Source: Bacillota bacterium (GTDB lineage Bacteria > Bacillota > Clostridia > Peptostreptococcales > Anaerovoracaceae). From it: a DNA stretch of 32,565 bases. The stretch covers positions 1-32,565 of the forward strand of contig JAFUQN010000120.1 in the NCBI GenBank assembly GCA_017472365.1, read 5' to 3'. The notes under the pieces were generated by a model. It was given only the letters and a program-made list of their open reading frames with translations. It was not told where the DNA came from and searched no databases. The position numbers were made by a program, and so were the translations under genes. Numbering within the stretch: the first letter of the stretch is position 1; every line of letters starts with the position of its first letter. Shown piece after piece: positions 3,682 to 32,565 of the stretch.

Positions 3682-4176
3682 ATGAAAAGTGAAATCAAAG
3701 GAAATGTATTCAAATTCGGTGACAATATCAACACCGATATCATCTCCCCGCCGCAGTACATTGAACTGACCGTGGAAGAAGCCAGTGTACACGCCATGGA
3801 AGGCGTCGATCCTACGTTCACCAAACGGTTCCAGCCCGGCGACATCATCGTGGCAGGGAATAACTTCGGATCCGGTTCCAGCCGTGAAACCTCTCCCCTG
3901 GCTCTGCGTTACCTGGGAACCGGTGCGGTGGTTGCGAAATATTTTGCCCGTATCTTCTACCGCAACTCCATTAACATCGGCCTTCCGCTGTTCGAATGTT
4001 CCGAAACCGACAAGATCGATGCCGGCGACGTACTCCGCATCGACACGGCTAACGGAATCATCTACAACGAAACGAAAAGCGAAGAATACAAATGCAGTAA
4101 AATCCCCGATCATATCATGAGTCTGATTGAAGACGGCGGCCTGGTAAAGCGCCTGGAAAAGATGTTCGGAAAATAG
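3682..4176 (+). CDS. leuD: 3-isopropylmalate / 2,3-dimethylmalate dehydratase-type small subunit
   Basis: A 164-residue swivel-domain small subunit that pairs with the preceding large subunit. GDNINTDIISP (residues 13-23) and NNFGSGSSRE are the family hallmarks. The specificity loop after PPQ reads YIEL (26-29), which does not exactly match the YLxx forms I recall for isopropylmalate or homoaconitate enzymes, so the substrate cannot be read from it. Its AGGAGG lies inside the last codons of the large-subunit gene, indicating translational coupling. A strong terminator follows. Confidence 0.87.
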   Translation: MKSEIKGNVFKFGDNINTDIISPPQYIELTVEEASVHAMEGVDPTFTKRFQPGDIIVAGNNFGSGSSRETSPLALRYLGTGAVVAKYFARIFYRNSINIGLPLFECSETDKIDAGDVLRIDTANGIIYNETKSEEYKCSKIPDHIMSLIEDGGLVKRLEKMFGK

Positions 4177-4191
4177 ACCGCCGAAGGCGGT
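4177..4191. other. Small hairpin directly after the dehydratase operon
   Basis: ACCGCC/GGCGGT arms around GAA, beginning at the base after the leuD stop codon. It has no U-run of its own and stands in front of the stronger terminator at 4206-4240. Confidence 0.55.
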
Positions 4192-4205
4192 TGCCTCAAA
4201 AGAAG

Positions 4206-4240
4206 AAAACCCCGCAGGATCACCTGCGGGGTCATTTATT
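4206..4240. terminator. Bidirectional terminator between leuD and the lipoprotein gene
   Basis: Arms CCCCGCAGG (4210-4218) and CCTGCGGGG (4223-4231) around ATCA. T-rich sequence follows on the plus strand and AAAA precedes it (a T-run for the minus strand). It separates two convergent genes. Confidence 0.9.
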
Positions 4241-4252
4241 TTTTTGATTGTG

Positions 4253-5179
4253 TTATTCCCATTCAGCCAGCGCGTAGTAATAGTAACCTTCATTTACCAG
4301 GGAGAACACTTCATCCGTGGTCAGGCCGGTACCGTATTCCTGCGCATTTTCCAGAACGATATATTCAAAGCCTTCATAAGTGGAATCGAAGGGATAAGCA
4401 GTATAGCCTTCTTCCACATCTTCAACGCTTCCCCATTCCATGGAATCGCCGTAGTATACGGACCATCCTGCAAAGACAGCGCCATCCTTTTCAATGGAAT
4501 CCAAAGCATCCCAACCATCGTCAGCTACCGCCTCGTCCAGAGACTTTCCTGCGGAATACCAGTAGGTATACATTCCAGAATCCATCAGATCTCCCTCAGA
4601 ACTACGGAATATCATTACACCACCGTTCGCTCCCAGAGAGAAACCTACATCGCTGGATTCATATCCATAACCGCCTTCACTCTCGTCCTCTGCAAAGTAG
4701 TCCTCAATCAGGATATTTTCCCACTTAGCCACATAAGTCACCGGTTCTGCAGGAACTTCCAGTTCCATAAGTTCTTCTGTGGAATAGATCGTTCCTTCAG
4801 AAATCAGTTCATAGCTGTATTCTTCAAATCCGTCTTCATCTACCGTGATTACATCTTTGAAAATCATCCACCCTTCAAAGACATCATCTTCAGACTTAGC
4901 TTCCAGTGACGTGATTTCCAGGGCTTCCAAGGCTTCCCCCACGGTCTGTCCGGGTAATGCCGCCATTCCCCAGGACTGGGTTTCCAGCACTTCTCCGGAA
5001 GCATATTCACCGTACAACATTCCATTGGACATCCAGTACGCATCAATGGTAAAGTACAGTTCTTCCATATCGCCCATGTTCTGATCCAGATCCTCATCCG
5101 TACCGGAACCGCCGCAGCCCACAAGTGTCATCATCAATAAACAAAGAATCATAAAAATCGATACATACTTCTTTTTCAT
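4253..5179 (-). CDS. Secreted lipoprotein with two InlB/Listeria-Bacteroides-type repeat modules
   Basis: A 308-residue hypothetical lipoprotein. The signal peptide is MKKK plus a hydrophobic run with lipobox LVGC (C22), so it should be anchored on the outer face of the membrane. Two copies of a module follow, each ending in a 'FxGW ... YxAxWE' pattern: FEGW...YVAKWE in the first half and FAGW...YYALAEWE at the very C-terminus. That pattern is typical of InlB B-repeat/List-Bact repeats found on clostridial surface proteins. The composition is very acidic. The ATG at 5179 is chosen over an in-frame start 11 codons upstream because AGGAGG lies just before it. No enzymatic motif was recognised. 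Confidence 0.8.
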   Translation of the reverse strand: MKKKYVSIFMILCLLMMTLVGCGGSGTDEDLDQNMGDMEELYFTIDAYWMSNGMLYGEYASGEVLETQSWGMAALPGQTVGEALEALEITSLEAKSEDDVFEGWMIFKDVITVDEDGFEEYSYELISEGTIYSTEELMELEVPAEPVTYVAKWENILIEDYFAEDESEGGYGYESSDVGFSLGANGGVMIFRSSEGDLMDSGMYTYWYSAGKSLDEAVADDGWDALDSIEKDGAVFAGWSVYYGDSMEWGSVEDVEEGYTAYPFDSTYEGFEYIVLENAQEYGTGLTTDEVFSLVNEGYYYYALAEWE

Positions 5180-5222
5180 TTTCGTTCCTCCTGTCATTTG
5201 TACCCAGTTCATTTATCCTGTG

Positions 5223-5261
5223 CAGGGTAGATGCTTTCTATCTACGATCCATCCTACCCTG
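5223..5261. other. Hairpin between the two lipoprotein genes
   Basis: Arms CAGGGTAG (5223-5230) and CTACCCTG (5254-5261), with a partly paired 23-nt centre. There is no U-run on either strand, so it may be an mRNA-stability or processing stem rather than a terminator. Confidence 0.5.
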
Positions 5262-5317
5262 TCGCAGTGATTTTTTCGGTGATATTTTACGACAAATCCT
5301 TCAAAATTACAAAAAAT

Positions 5318-5920
5318 TTATTCCGAATCGAACATCGAAGCCGGAAGGATGTCCACATTAGCTCTGTGAACGTAGACAAGCTTACCGTCAATATTGATCA
5401 GTGTTGTCTTAGGGAGATCTTCCGGAATCTCTACATAACATTTATTCCCCTGGAATAATCCTACCGGCGTTCCGTTCTGCGAAGATACCAAAACTACCAG
5501 CTTCTTTCCGAATTGATTTTTATAGTTATTGATCACCCGGTCCACACCGATCAGCCCGCTGCTTCCTCCTTCATTTTCCATGGTTTCCGGAACGGAAAAA
5601 TCCGTGATCAAATCCACACCGGCCTGAGAAAACACCAAAGTGCTTCCTACATGCTGCCACTTGGCACCATCCACCGTAATATTGATATAAGAGGACGGTT
5701 CTCCGGCCTCATCAGTCTCACAGTCCATGGCGATTTTATCACCGTAAGCCGTGAATACCAGATTTCCAAAGTCATCATACTGGCGGATCGTATAGTCGTT
5801 TCCAACCAGCTCTCCCTTCAGTTTCTTCACAAAGGTTTCCGCAGCCGCACAGCCGCTGAATGCGATCGCCAGAATCAAAATCGATGTAATCACCATGCAA
5901 AGCTTCGTCTGTTTCTTCAT
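5318..5920 (-). CDS. DUF5052-like lipoprotein
   Basis: A 200-residue membrane-anchored lipoprotein. The hydrophobic signal ends in FSGC, giving lipidated C24. The following body (ETFVKKLKGELVGNDYTIRQYD and on, with a later WQHVGSTLVF segment) resembles the DUF5052 family from Firmicutes, whose function is unknown. The start at 5920 has AAGGAG 7 nt upstream, inside the end of the upstream ATPase gene. That gene's stop codon is one base away, so the two were probably co-translated. Because the upstream gene is broken, expression of this one may now depend on other transcription. The family assignment is from memory of its pattern and is moderate. Confidence 0.75.
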   Translation of the reverse strand: MKKQTKLCMVITSILILAIAFSGCAAAETFVKKLKGELVGNDYTIRQYDDFGNLVFTAYGDKIAMDCETDEAGEPSSYINITVDGAKWQHVGSTLVFSQAGVDLITDFSVPETMENEGGSSGLIGVDRVINNYKNQFGKKLVVLVSSQNGTPVGLFQGNKCYVEIPEDLPKTTLINIDGKLVYVHRANVDILPASMFDSE

Positions 5921-5921
5921 C

Positions 5922-6833
5922 TCAATTCTCCTTTTCAAATAATCCGCTGTGTTTCTTGAAAAACTCGTAATAGATTTTTGTGTTCTCCAGCTCCCACCAG
6001 TGTTTCGTTTCTGCCGGTGTACTGTCCAGGTCGTAGATCCTGGCTCCTTCCAACGCCAGAAGGAACGGCGAATGGGTAGCTATGATAAACTGACAGCCAC
6101 AGTAATGGGCCATCTTCTCCAGGTTCTTCACCAGTTCCAGCTGCATAGCCGGTGACATACTGTTTTCCGGCTCATCAAGACAGTACAGCGTATCATTTTT
6201 TAACTGTTTTCGGAAATAAGCCAGCGCTGTCTCACCGTTGCTGTTCAACTTCACCTCATCCCCAGCAGTATTCCGGATAAACTGACGCCTCGACACCGAT
6301 TTCTTCCGCGCCATGACCTGAAGCCGCAGAGCTTCATAATCCTGCATCCCCCGCATCTTCACCGTATCTCCGAACTTCAGATTCGCCCACTCAGTTCTGG
6401 CATCATCTTTCTGTTCTGCGATATCCAGGTTGTTGGTCCGTACCGTCAACATGTAGTCAAAAATATCGTCACTGGTGATTATCCGACTTCCATTGGGAAT
6501 CCGCATTGGCTCTCCGTCCTCATCGTCGCACATGGAATACCTGCACCGGTCCACATACATATCGAACATCTCCCCGGAATTATACGGCGCTACTCGTTTT
6601 AATCCCAGCCTCTGAGCGATCAGATTCAACAGCGTACTCTTTCCGGTACCATTCCCACCGTAGAAAATCGTGACCCTATCAAAGAGCACAGCCTCCAGTT
6701 ACTTCTTAGAAAACAGCCGACAGGGGTAAAGATTGTCCACTTATCCGAATTTCTTTCCACCGTTTTCGATCATTTTCCTCTGAATCAGCCAGTCCTCCTC
6801 ACGGATCGGCAAATAAAACGATGATATATACAT
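5922..6833 (-). pseudogene. SMC/ABC-type AAA ATPase, interrupted by two in-frame UAA codons
   Basis: From the ATG at 6833 (GGGGGA upstream, TATAAT at 6864-6869) the frame reads MYISSFYLPIREEDW and so on. It then meets UAA at codon 31 (6741-6743) and again at codon 45 (6699-6701), and continues without a frame change into an ATPase: Walker A GGNGTGKST (codons 59-67), Walker B LYCLDEPE and the ATHSPF switch. Clostridial relatives of this overlap-type ATPase begin with MYIS-like strands and a linker of this length, so both sides of the stops belong to one ancestral gene. The fragment after the second stop could start at GTG 6689, but it would lack the first strands and has GGAGG only 2 nt away. 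It is most likely an inactive gene. Readthrough is not supported by other genes here, which use UAA as a normal stop. Confidence 0.8.
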
Positions 6834-6863
6834 TTCCGTTCCCCCTTTTCTCACCTTAGACCC

Positions 6864-6869
6864 ATTATA
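6864..6869 (-). promoter_or_regulatory. Putative -10 box of the broken ATPase gene
   Basis: TATAAT on the minus strand, about 30 bp upstream of the ATG at 6833. No convincing -35 was found. It supports placing the ancestral start at 6833 rather than inside the ORF. Confidence 0.45.
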
Positions 6870-6951
6870 CCGCATAATGTGGTACAAATAATGGACTTTT
6901 TTATGTAATCTTCCGATATCACTAAATGAAAATATATATCTTTTCAATGCC

Positions 6952-7228
6952 GGGGAGAGTCGATAGTTTTTTATTATCCGTCCTCTCCCCGAATATGCAC
7001 AAAAACTCTTCTCGAGGAGAGTCCCCTATATTATTAACCCCATTCTCTCCCCGAGGTCCATAAAAACAGCGTATTCGGGAGAGAATCATCTTTTTCACGG
7101 CTGTTTCTCTCCCTGAAGTCGTAAAACGGGGAGAGCAGGCTATATTTTCTGGTCTCAACTCTCCTCTTGGCAGTGATAAGGACCTTTCCGGGGAGAGTTG
7201 GCTGTTTTTATTGATTAAGGCTCTCCCT
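6952..7228. repeat. Alternating inverted 8-mer array 1 (10 elements, 31-bp phase)
   Basis: Elements start at 6952, 6983, 7014, 7045, 7076, 7107, 7128, 7159, 7190 and 7221. Odd ones are GGGGAGAG or a near variant (GAGGAGAG at 7014, CGGGAGAG at 7076). Even ones are CTCTCCCC or a near variant (CTCTCCCT at 7107 and 7221, CTCTCCTC at 7159). Every step is 31 bp except 7107 to 7128, which is 21 bp. The 23-nt segments between them are all different; most have a T-tract or A-tract near the middle. The array fills the non-coding gap between the lysS terminator and the promoter of the broken ATPase gene. The continuous minus-strand reading frame across it has no ribosome-binding site and no recognisable protein and is treated as fortuitous. 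Confidence 0.93.
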
Positions 7229-7249
7229 CGCCTCACATCTTTCAATTGA

Positions 7250-7276
7250 GCAACCCGCGCCGCAGGCGCGGGTTGC
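7250..7276. repeat. Perfect 12-bp hairpin beside array 1
   Basis: Arms GCAACCCGCGCC (7250-7261) and GGCGCGGGTTGC (7265-7276) with a 3-nt loop, 21 bp beyond the last array element. It is very GC-rich with no U-run, so not a standard terminator. A short tandem TGGTGTAAAA duplication lies between it and the lysS terminator. Confidence 0.85.
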
Positions 7277-7323
7277 CCGAGAAATGCGTTCCATTTGTCG
7301 TAAACTATGGTGTAAAATGGTGT

Positions 7324-7359
7324 AAAAAAGCCCCTCTGCATCTTCTGCAAAGGGGCTTT
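7324..7359 (-). terminator. Terminator of lysS
   Basis: On the minus strand, outer arms AAAGCCCCT/AGGGGCTTT with an inner TGCA/TGCA stem, ending in a run of six Ts. It begins about 20 bp after the lysS stop and isolates array 1 from lysS transcription. Confidence 0.9.
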
Positions 7360-7378
7360 ATGTTGAAATTTCAACGAT

Positions 7379-26165: not shown

Positions 26166-26200
26166 GATCAAAATCTCTCTTTCTTTTCGATGTTATCCGG

Positions 26201-26347
26201 CGACAAGAGAACCTCTGTTACGGTTTTGATTCCGCTTTTTCCTTTCCCTCTTACGACTTACCGGACAAATTGCCGTGGCAGCATCCGCCGAATCTTTCGA
26301 TCACTGCCAATCCTCGTCACCCTGTTACGGGCCAGGCGCTATAGAAT
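26201..26347 (-). ncRNA. glmS ribozyme: glmS ribozyme (GlcN6P-activated self-cleaving RNA) in the nagB leader
   Basis: Reading the minus strand, the conserved core is present in order: cleavage site A|GCGCC (between 26340 and 26339), GGGUGACGAGGAU, a GGCAG/CUGCC P2 stem, the GAUCGAAAGAUUCGGCGGAU P2.2 block, and ACGGC pairing with GUCGU followed by AAG. The 3' P3/P4 region closes with AAGAG/CUCUU. These match the known B. subtilis glmS ribozyme closely. On binding GlcN6P the RNA cuts itself, and the 5'-OH downstream mRNA is degraded. The next gene is nagB, about 35 bp beyond the ribozyme, not glmS. Confidence 0.93.
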
Positions 26348-26384
26348 CTCCAGTTTACCCCCATGCAGAGATCCCATTTATATT

Positions 26385-31378: not shown

Positions 31379-32170
31379 ATGAGTCAGAACTTATTTCAAT
31401 TAAAACACATCCTCAGCCTCATGCGGCGGGAACTTTCAACAAAAGAACGGGAACTGGAACATCTCCCGAAAGGCAGCTTATACCTGAAGCCACGTAAAGC
31501 CTATACCTCATTATGTTGGCAGCAGGAGGCCAGTCAAAGCCCTACAAAAACACGTTCTCAAAAGATTTTGGGTGAAGCTCAGCGTCCCATTGCAGAAAGC
31601 ATTCAGCGACGCCACTTATTAGAATCACAAATACCTGTCCTTCAAAACAATATTGATCTTCTTTCTACCTGCATTGAAAACTACCAACCGTACAGCGAGG
31701 ACGATATTCGAAAGTCTTTACCCGAAATCTATACGGCGCCTCTGCAGTATCACGGTTTTGATGATATGACCTGCTCAGTTCCATCATCCTCTCAATCCTT
31801 GTATCCGGAAGGCCTGATCCACAAAAACTCTGTCGGCGAACGATTTCGTTCTAAATCAGAAGTCCAGATTTCCGAGCTGCTTCGGTCCATGAATATCACT
31901 TATGTCTATGAACCATGTCTTTCTCTGGGGGCTAAGACTGTACATCCCGATTTTATGTTAAAACACCCGCGTTCTCAAAAGGCCATTCTCATTGAATACT
32001 TTGGAATGGTCGATGATAACGATTACGGACTTCGTATGCTGGAGAAAATGCGGCTGTATTTAAATCATGGGTACATTCCCGGCCGCAACATCCTTTTTCT
32101 TTTCGAGACACAATCCTCTGGAATCGATCTCATGGCCGTACAAGCTTCAATTAAACAGTTGGTTTCTTAA
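31379..32170 (+). CDS. PD-(D/E)XK nuclease-fold protein next to array 2
   Basis: A 263-residue protein of unknown role. The C-terminal third looks like a PD-(D/E)XK nuclease: RFRSKSEVQISELL with E161, VHPDF with D191, LIEYFGM with E206, and K223 in LEKMRLYLNHGY as a candidate catalytic lysine. The order Glu, Asp, Glu, then a displaced Lys is seen in a widespread clostridial family of uncharacterised proteins ('RSKSE ... PDF ... EHxGM ... K'). The first ~110 residues are helical and partly coiled coil, with LPKGSLYL (29-36), also a mark of that family. The ATG is chosen because AAAAGAGG lies 5 nt upstream. Array 2 begins 11 bp after the stop with no terminator. Nuclease activity is inferred. 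Confidence 0.8.
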   Translation: MSQNLFQLKHILSLMRRELSTKERELEHLPKGSLYLKPRKAYTSLCWQQEASQSPTKTRSQKILGEAQRPIAESIQRRHLLESQIPVLQNNIDLLSTCIENYQPYSEDDIRKSLPEIYTAPLQYHGFDDMTCSVPSSSQSLYPEGLIHKNSVGERFRSKSEVQISELLRSMNITYVYEPCLSLGAKTVHPDFMLKHPRSQKAILIEYFGMVDDNDYGLRMLEKMRLYLNHGYIPGRNILFLFETQSSGIDLMAVQASIKQLVS

Positions 32171-32181
32171 CCTTCTCCTTT

Positions 32182-32530
32182 GAGGAGAGCCACTCGCATT
32201 ATTTGCTTCCGTCTCTCCCCGTTTAGGACTATTTCTGGTAATCGGGGAGAGTTATTATTGATTTCAATCTTGTTCTCTCCCCGTTACGCTCATTTCTCCC
32301 GTTCGAGGGAGAGTCTGGTCCTTTTCCAAAGAACTTCTCTCCCCGATCCGGCTTATTTTCACTGTTCGAGGAGAGTCAGCAGTTTTTTTCGTCATACACT
32401 CTCCCCATCTCAATCCATTTTCATAAATCGAGGAGAGTCACCATTGTTTTTCGCCACTTTCTCTCCCCACAGGTCACGTTTCTTCCTTTTCGGGGAGAGC
32501 AGAATCAAATTTTGTACCACTTCTCTCCCC
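32182..32530. repeat. Alternating inverted 8-mer array 2 (12 elements, exact 31-bp phase)
   Basis: Elements start at 32182, 32213, 32244, 32275, 32306, 32337, 32368, 32399, 32430, 32461, 32492 and 32523: every step is exactly 31 bp. Odd elements are GGGGAGAG (32244, 32492), GAGGAGAG (32182, 32368, 32430) or AGGGAGAG (32306). All six even elements are CTCTCCCC. The first element also pairs locally with TTCTCC just upstream. All eleven 23-nt intervening segments differ, but each has a T-tract of three or more near its centre. Together with 32171-32181 and the tail to 32565, this non-coding stretch of about 395 bp holds no other gene. Confidence 0.95.
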
Positions 32531-32563
32531 TTCGTTCAAAACCCTTCGTTGAAACCCTTCGTT
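32528..32563. repeat. Short direct repeats at the end of array 2
   Basis: CCCTTCGTT occurs at 32528-32536, 32542-32550 and 32555-32563 (steps of 14 and 13 bp), starting within the last array element and running to the window edge. It may continue outside. Confidence 0.7.
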
Positions 32564-32565
32564 CA

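What the first reader, a model, noticed from the sequence alone, without database searches (positions are those of the whole stretch)
32182..32530. Array 2: twelve alternately inverted 8-mers at an exact 31-bp period with unique intervening segments
Seen: 12 elements, GGGGAGAG-type and CTCTCCCC in strict alternation, starting every 31 bp without a single deviation. Only 8-9 of each 31 bases are conserved, and the other 23 differ in every unit. Established: CRISPR repeats are longer and point the same way; REP/BIME elements alternate but conserve the longer repeat body, not a rigid period. Inference: selection acts on the spacing and on the short repeat, while the segments are free to vary or are actively diversified. 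That is what an information-bearing or protein-scaffolding array would look like. I do not recognise a described class.
Basis: seen in the sequence. Interest (0 to 1): 0.93.

Follow-up and report, generated by a model that had tools for sequence, protein, structure and literature searches.

The report
Nuclease gene with phased site array
Beside a gene for a predicted DNA-cutting enzyme lie twelve short DNA words in alternating direction, each exactly 31 letters (about three helix turns) from the next, which are likely docking sites for that enzyme; many related genes in other bacteria sit beside arrays of their own, built of different words.

Summary
In detail: twelve 8-mers (mostly GRGGAGAG / CTCTCCCC) alternate at exactly 31 bp over 32182-32530, and an overlapping contig shows the array is complete. 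It is one of seven arrays of this motif in the genome. It starts 11 bp after a gene (31379-32170) for an undescribed protein with a predicted PD-(D/E)XK nuclease fold (1,550 protein clusters, no convincing Pfam or NCBIfam match). Relatives of this gene across Clostridia sit beside arrays of a locus-specific motif (37 of 107 gene loci, 0 of 40 control pseudo-loci). Paralogues in one genome have different motifs. In orthologues the clear arrays keep the sites and lose the spacers. Site spacings are multiples of about 10.5 bp, and spacer midpoints are A/T (53 of 54 here). Gene-less arrays occur in 4 of 4 genomes examined. Best reading: a double-stranded, helix-phased site array for its cognate nuclease-like protein, organised like a REPtron (TnpAREP with its REPs) but with an unrelated enzyme. 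Binding, cutting and spreading are inferred, not tested. I found no sign that the spacers are guides.

The parts
31379..32170 (+). Gene for the array-associated protein, 263 aa: helical N-terminal domain (residues 1-118) and predicted PD-(D/E)XK nuclease domain (about 146-263)
31814..32167 (+). Predicted nuclease domain; E161, D191 and E206 (catalytic by my assignment) invariant in 92 sequences
32182..32530 (.). Array 2: 12 elements, step 31 bp, alternating; complete
32182..32189 (+). element 1 GAGGAGAG
32213..32220 (-). element 2 CTCTCCCC
32244..32251 (+). element 3 GGGGAGAG
32275..32282 (-). element 4 CTCTCCCC
32306..32313 (+). element 5 AGGGAGAG
32337..32344 (-). element 6 CTCTCCCC
32368..32375 (+). 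element 7 GAGGAGAG
32399..32406 (-). element 8 CTCTCCCC
32430..32437 (+). element 9 GAGGAGAG
32461..32468 (-). element 10 CTCTCCCC
32492..32499 (+). element 11 GGGGAGAG
32523..32530 (-). element 12 CTCTCCCC
6952..7228 (.). Array 1: gene-less array of the same motif, 10 elements, steps 31 except one of 21

Best explanation
Array 2 is likely the docking array of the predicted PD-(D/E)XK nuclease encoded 11 bp upstream: twelve short sites in alternating orientation exactly 31 bp apart, a spacing that would put them all on one face of the double helix. The spacers are A/T at the midpoint, so the DNA between sites probably bends, and the protein likely binds pairs of facing sites cooperatively (inferred). 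Gene and array form one of many such pairs across Clostridia, each with its own motif (linkage shown, recognition inferred). Gene-less arrays of the same motif lie elsewhere in the genome (shown). The most likely way they arise (inferred) is that the nuclease nicks or cuts in or beside its arrays and repair then expands, homogenises and occasionally reseeds them, much as TnpAREP is thought to spread REPs; afterwards selection for binding keeps motif and phase while spacers drift.
For: Linkage: 37 of 107 gene loci pass a two-orientation array test against 0 of 40 control pseudo-loci; without the orientation rule 48 of 107 against 1 of 40. Median distance from gene to nearest array element 76.5 bp in 36 loci. 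Outside the taxonomic family, 6 of 10 loci show clear alternating arrays and two more weaker or one-sided ones. Specificity: 7 genomes with two or more array-positive genes, no motif shared in 24 ordered pairs; motif sharing falls with protein identity, 3 of 4, 5 of 12, 2 of 102, 16 of 1246 and 27 of 2344 ordered pairs; the motif is absent from four congeners without a close orthologue. Selection: site columns identical 365 of 459, between-site columns 1003 of 1681 in 11 scored orthologue flanks; dN/dS 0.03-0.17 in 13 of 14 pairs, one saturated. DNA-level phasing: 153 same-orientation distances in 63 nuclease clusters, nR2 25.6 against a maximum of 11.2 in 2000 jittered sets; repeated in 10 loci of other families; A/T midpoints 53 of 54 here and midpoint more A/T than its spacer in 30 of 34 flanks elsewhere. 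Dispersal: gene-less arrays in G000, G023, G281 and G183, with no nuclease gene in any of the 26 fetched stretches around them. Enzyme.
Against: No binding or cutting was tested. 70 of 107 gene loci fail the two-orientation test, so many arrays are short, decayed or absent; the window's own array is among the 70 because its best exact 8-mer was counted in one orientation only. Three of 11 orthologue flanks show no excess at sites, and three more gave no candidate motif. Main arrays lie upstream of the gene in 23 of 36 loci, which also suits an operator role. No target duplication or clean insertion junction was found. Controls are random genome places, mostly coding, not matched for intergenic content. 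Distances pooled for phasing are not fully independent.
Confidence: 0.6

Rival explanations
1. The protein binds the array only as a large operator or depot: it controls its own gene, or is held on the chromosome until it acts on other DNA such as invading DNA. The enzyme does not spread the arrays.
For: Main array upstream of the gene in 23 of 36 loci. The nuclease domain matches the C-terminus of PADLOC candidate defence proteins PDC-S68 in 92 of 92 members. Several orthogonal copies per genome and strong purifying selection.
Against: Gene-less arrays far from the gene in 4 of 4 genomes; 13 of 36 main arrays downstream of the gene; no conserved partner gene.
Confidence: 0.25
2. A minisatellite in decay: tandem 62-bp units duplicated long ago and drifted, without function.
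For: Arrays do grow by tandem duplication: 52-bp units in G023 with core identity 0.89 within and 0.79 between arrays, a 94-bp duplicate in G281, and neighbouring spacers of C72 reaching 0.74 identity in G000.
Against: In G000 spacers have fallen to mean identity 0.30 and 0.32 while 8-mers, steps and A/T midpoints are kept. Site columns are conserved over spacers between orthologues, and spacings are quantised across unrelated motifs.
Confidence: 0.05
3. An RNA or guide array: transcribed hairpins or unique segments that carry information, CRISPR-like.
For: Facing repeats can pair and the array folds better than shuffles (z -6.5), as any inverted array would. Segments are unique in this array.
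Against: Orientation alternates; steps change by whole helix turns (31 or 21); no invader match beyond chance (a single short protospacer in an unsampled phage would be missed); units near-identical in G023; the window has no Rfam match at gathering score except a glmS ribozyme.
Confidence: 0.05
4. A general chromosome-organising protein binds the arrays, and the nuclease genes merely sit near them.
For: Gene-less arrays between unrelated genes; phased, bendable DNA.
Against: Motifs differ between paralogous loci of one genome (0 of 24 shared) and follow the nuclease protein; one general protein would read one motif.
Confidence: 0.05

Closest known systems
REPtron / RAYT-REPIN (TnpAREP with REP and BIME sequences; PMC8266576 and PMC3116915, abstracts and outlines seen)
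   Same: One chromosomal DNA-processing gene beside its own short inverted repeats, repeats alternate in orientation, gene-less copies are dispersed between genes, several orthogonal pairs can coexist, enzyme and repeat change together
   Different: Enzyme is predicted PD-(D/E)XK, not HuH; PF01797 is absent from this genome; sites are 8-mers held in helix phase on double-stranded DNA with long spacers, not compact single-strand hairpins
VSR-like (EDxHD) homing endonucleases such as I-Bth0305I
   Different: No intron, intein or cleaved empty site seen; many sites in an array rather than one; vertically kept under purifying selection
BIME-type arrays and other dispersed bacterial palindromes
   Same: Alternating orientation, intergenic, multicopy
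   Different: Rigid helix-phased step, only about 8 bp conserved, A/T-centred spacers, different associated gene
PDC-S68 (PADLOC candidate defence proteins)
   Same: The last ~130 residues match (E 7.6e-23; 92 of 92 members)
   Different: Those profiles are about 1,200 residues; this protein is 263 aa and matches no other part of them
CRISPR array
   Same: Short repeats with unique segments of constant length
   Different: Repeats alternate in orientation and are 8 bp; no invader match beyond chance; units tandemly duplicated in G023

Membership tests
REPtron (TnpAREP/REP) | HuH/Y1 transposase TnpAREP (PF01797) | tested here: not met
   0 matches in G000; control genomes ring in 5 of 14; the linked gene has a predicted PD-(D/E)XK fold
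REPtron (TnpAREP/REP) | gene beside its own cognate repeats | tested here: met
   37 of 107 gene loci against 0 of 40 controls
REPtron (TnpAREP/REP) | repeats dispersed without the gene | tested here: met
   4 of 4 genomes
REPtron (TnpAREP/REP) | REP is a compact 20-40 nt imperfect palindrome processed as single strand (from the abstracts and recalled) | tested here: not met
   8-bp arms with 23-nt spacers and helix phasing; processing itself not testable here
CRISPR | repeats in one orientation | tested here: not met
   strict alternation
CRISPR | spacers match invaders | tested here: inconclusive
   none at E 1e-5, chance-level matches only at E up to 10; most true CRISPR spacers also lack matches
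CRISPR | cas genes | not tested
   no search made
Homing endonuclease (VSR-like/EDxHD) | catalytic fold | tested here: met
Homing endonuclease (VSR-like/EDxHD) | gene lies in, and its enzyme cuts, an empty target site | tested here: inconclusive
   no clean empty site in the cases looked at; cutting not tested
PDC-S68 candidate defence protein | about 1,200-residue protein over its whole length | tested here: not met
   only profile positions 1089-1218 of 1221 match
TIGR-Tas (recalled from memory only) | Nop-domain Tas protein and guide RNAs from the array | not tested
   considered as a lead only; the linked protein here models as PD-(D/E)XK

The most novel reading that the evidence does not exclude
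A new class of genetic element: a PD-(D/E)XK nuclease that reads helix-phased, alternating double-stranded sites and maintains and spreads its own arrays, a double-stranded counterpart of the REPtron, present in several mutually orthogonal copies per genome across Clostridia, with enzyme-coated, bent DNA arrays scattered over the chromosome.
Probability: 0.45. Interest if true: 0.88.

Novelty: categorically new. Interest (0 to 1): 0.82.

Why it matters
It would tie over a thousand unnamed protein clusters to a visible DNA target and a predicted activity, and add a second, unrelated enzyme class to the REP kind of genome repeat. It would offer many natural pairs of a DNA-reading protein and its site. 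It also makes an old question testable: why bacteria keep dispersed palindromic arrays. Here enzyme and candidate substrate are named locus by locus, so binding, cutting and array growth can be measured directly.

Tried and rejected
CRISPR or guide array: rejected on orientation, helix phasing and lack of invader matches beyond chance. Motif in viruses: an exact-pattern scan of viral contigs gave 100 stretches; the 80 listed are isolated pairs spread over gap lengths 22, 23 and 24, so chance. Nuclease in viral contigs: 166 pattern stretches, none confirmed. Conserved partner gene: none found; the largest neighbour cluster covers 12 of 104 loci and 7 of 84 nuclease clusters, probably synteny by descent. 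RNA fold z -6.5: uninformative for an inverted array. Rfam at gathering score: only a glmS ribozyme. Foldseek against PDB: no hit at E 0.001; against viral models 6 hits at E 0.001, among them a homing endonuclease and a restriction enzyme; sequence profile against PDB chains: best E 0.13. N-terminal domain: only generic helical hairpins (prefoldin, Rad50 coil); not predicted alone, so its fold is open. Insertion junctions: in congener G003 leuD lies directly beside lysS, so window 4177-7378 including array 1 is absent there, with no clean junction at the array.

Methods changed on the way: one search missed most arrays that one search found; an 8-mer count with one mismatch was too noisy and was replaced by exact 8-mers. 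Genome contigs returned 4 loci, two of them the same loci as L066 and L067. Own-report checks: G023 stretches L294 and L295 share 72 60-mers on opposite strands at contig ends and are one array, so I count five arrays there, not six; the within/between identities treat them as two.

Rows dropped: L061 and L062 (duplicates) from counts; L063 and L064 (Gracilibacteria) count among the 107; L031 left out of the phasing tests; L319 left out of the outside-family set because it belongs to the family; 3 of 14 orthologue pair-flanks gave no candidate motif. The window was added by hand to the array-positive set.

Full report
1. The observation. Array 2 is as described: 12 elements, strict alternation, every step 31 bp, 32182-32530. 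100 shuffled windows never gave an alternating run above 2. The window stops 35 bp after the last element, but contig C156 overlaps it by 141 identical bases and runs on into unique sequence, so the array is complete.

2. Same motif elsewhere in this genome. Seven arrays exist in G000: array 2, array 1 (6952-7228) and one each on contigs C15, C72, C101, C111 and C130. They lie between predicted genes; open frames that overlap three of them look spurious to me. The '> to <' step is 31 in 35 of 38 scored steps; the '< to >' step is 31 in 19 and 21, one helix turn less, in 8 of 31. Spacers of different units are unrelated on the whole (mean identity 0.30 and 0.32; the highest, 0.74, is between units of the C72 array). 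Yet the midpoint of the 23-nt spacer is A/T in 53 of 54; A/T content falls to about one half some six bases away and rises again beside the site. In the eight 13-nt spacers of the 21-bp step the midpoint is not A/T-rich (0.38) and A/T lies nearer the sites. The pattern is tied to distance from the motif, as expected for DNA bent in phase with the helix (inference).

4. A family of gene-array pairs. This genome has four further copies of the gene, one cut short; two of the four pass the array test without the orientation rule or with it, with motifs of their own (AATTCTCA, AAAACCAT). The gene family is in 195 of 296 genomes of the taxonomic family and 37 of 245 of the class, with matches at E below 1e-30 in five families. 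I fetched 100 loci, taken mostly in order of score from the listed matches, leaving out some at contig ends. With an exact-8-mer test (4 or more copies, pair z above 5, both orientations), 37 of 107 gene loci pass against 0 of 40 control pseudo-loci from the same genomes. The controls are mostly coding and so not perfectly matched. Of 10 loci outside the family, L313, L315, L316, L317, L318 and L321 show clear alternating arrays, L311 and L312 weaker or one-sided ones. Motifs differ: AGGCAGGG, ATAGTTGC, GTTACGCA, TAGCAATA, CCCAATAA and others.

5. Motif goes with the gene. In seven genomes with two or more positive genes no motif is shared (0 of 24 ordered pairs). Between loci, sharing (3 or more copies) falls from 3 of 4 ordered pairs at 75% protein identity or more to 5 of 12 (60-75%), 2 of 102 (45-60%), 16 of 1246 and 27 of 2344. 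Four congeners have neither the GGGGAGAG pair nor a close orthologue (best 38-48% identity).

6. Selection on sites, not spacers. In 11 scored orthologue flanks, sites defined in one locus alone are identical in the other at 365 of 459 columns, against 1003 of 1681 between sites. The five clearest give 0.91-1.00 against 0.53-0.76 (for example L110/L149, 52 of 54 against 85 of 151). Three of the 11 go the other way and may hold no true array. The genes are under purifying selection (dN/dS 0.03-0.17 in 13 pairs, the fourteenth saturated).

7. Helix phase. Distances between successive same-orientation sites cluster at multiples of about 10.5 bp: 162 distances in 76 loci, nR2 27-29 at periods 10.5-10.75; 28 control distances give below 0.6. 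With one set per nuclease cluster, 153 distances in 63 clusters give 25.6 against a maximum of 11.2 in 2000 jittered sets; ten loci from other families repeat it (nR2 12-13, phase near 0). Midpoints are more A/T than their spacers in 30 of 34 flanks. This points to binding on one face of double-stranded DNA and is hard to explain for RNA.

8. How arrays grow and spread. In G023 the AGGCAGGG motif forms five arrays, one by the gene and four without it, made of 52-bp units. Units are alike within an array (0.89 in the A-tract core, 0.78 in the linker) and less so between arrays (0.79, 0.63). In G183 the gene of L109 is flanked by inverted copies (82 nt, 76%) of a sequence with relatives at 67-88% identity on 14 other contigs (11 stretches checked); its motif was read by eye, and L109 itself is not among the 37. 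In G281 the GTTACGC motif recurs at four gene-less places with 3 to 14 sites. None of the 26 fetched stretches around such places (20, 6) encodes the nuclease. So arrays grow by tandem duplication, become homogeneous and have relatives far from the gene; older ones such as those of G000 keep only motif, phase and A/T midpoints. The order in time is inferred.

9. Reading. The parsimonious account is a site-specific DNA-binding nuclease with its own array of sites. The organisation matches the REPtron (PMC8266576, PMC3116915: abstracts and outlines seen), but the enzyme class differs and PF01797 is absent from this genome, so it works like one and is not a member. Inferred rather than shown: that the N-terminal domain reads the motif, that the enzyme cuts, and that cutting drives array growth. 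Six answered literature searches listed nothing that describes such a pair; subscription journals and preprints are not covered.

Noticed in passing
26195-26351 (-): glmS ribozyme, 58.4 bits, upstream of a glucosamine-6-phosphate deaminase-like gene (gene name from my reading).
   Followed up: no
4177-7378: In congener G003, whose lysS region is 94% identical, leuD lies directly beside lysS, so this 3.2-kb stretch with two lipoprotein-like genes, an AAA ATPase gene and array 1 is absent there.
   Followed up: partly
32531-32565: Right after array 2 a short direct repeat (TTCGTTCAAAACCC-like, three copies running into contig C156).
   Followed up: no
L031 (G000:C103), about 2640-2960 and 4020-4330: A paralogue of the nuclease gene lies between two long, nearly identical direct copies of its array region (by eye).
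   Followed up: no
L048 (G007:C13): A long helicase-like protein (open frame 1,207 codons) carries a nuclease domain of the same kind inside it.
   Followed up: no
L092, L093, L095, L098, L100, L116, L142 among others: Divergent copies of the nuclease gene occupy the same operon position in several genomes (12 loci, 7 nuclease clusters), which suggests long vertical inheritance with fast divergence.
   Followed up: partly
L063, L064: Two contigs titled Candidatus Gracilibacteria encode a related nuclease domain.
   Followed up: no
L085: A 13-bp tandem repeat (7 copies of an exact 8-mer) lies upstream of this nuclease gene, unlike the alternating arrays.
   Followed up: no
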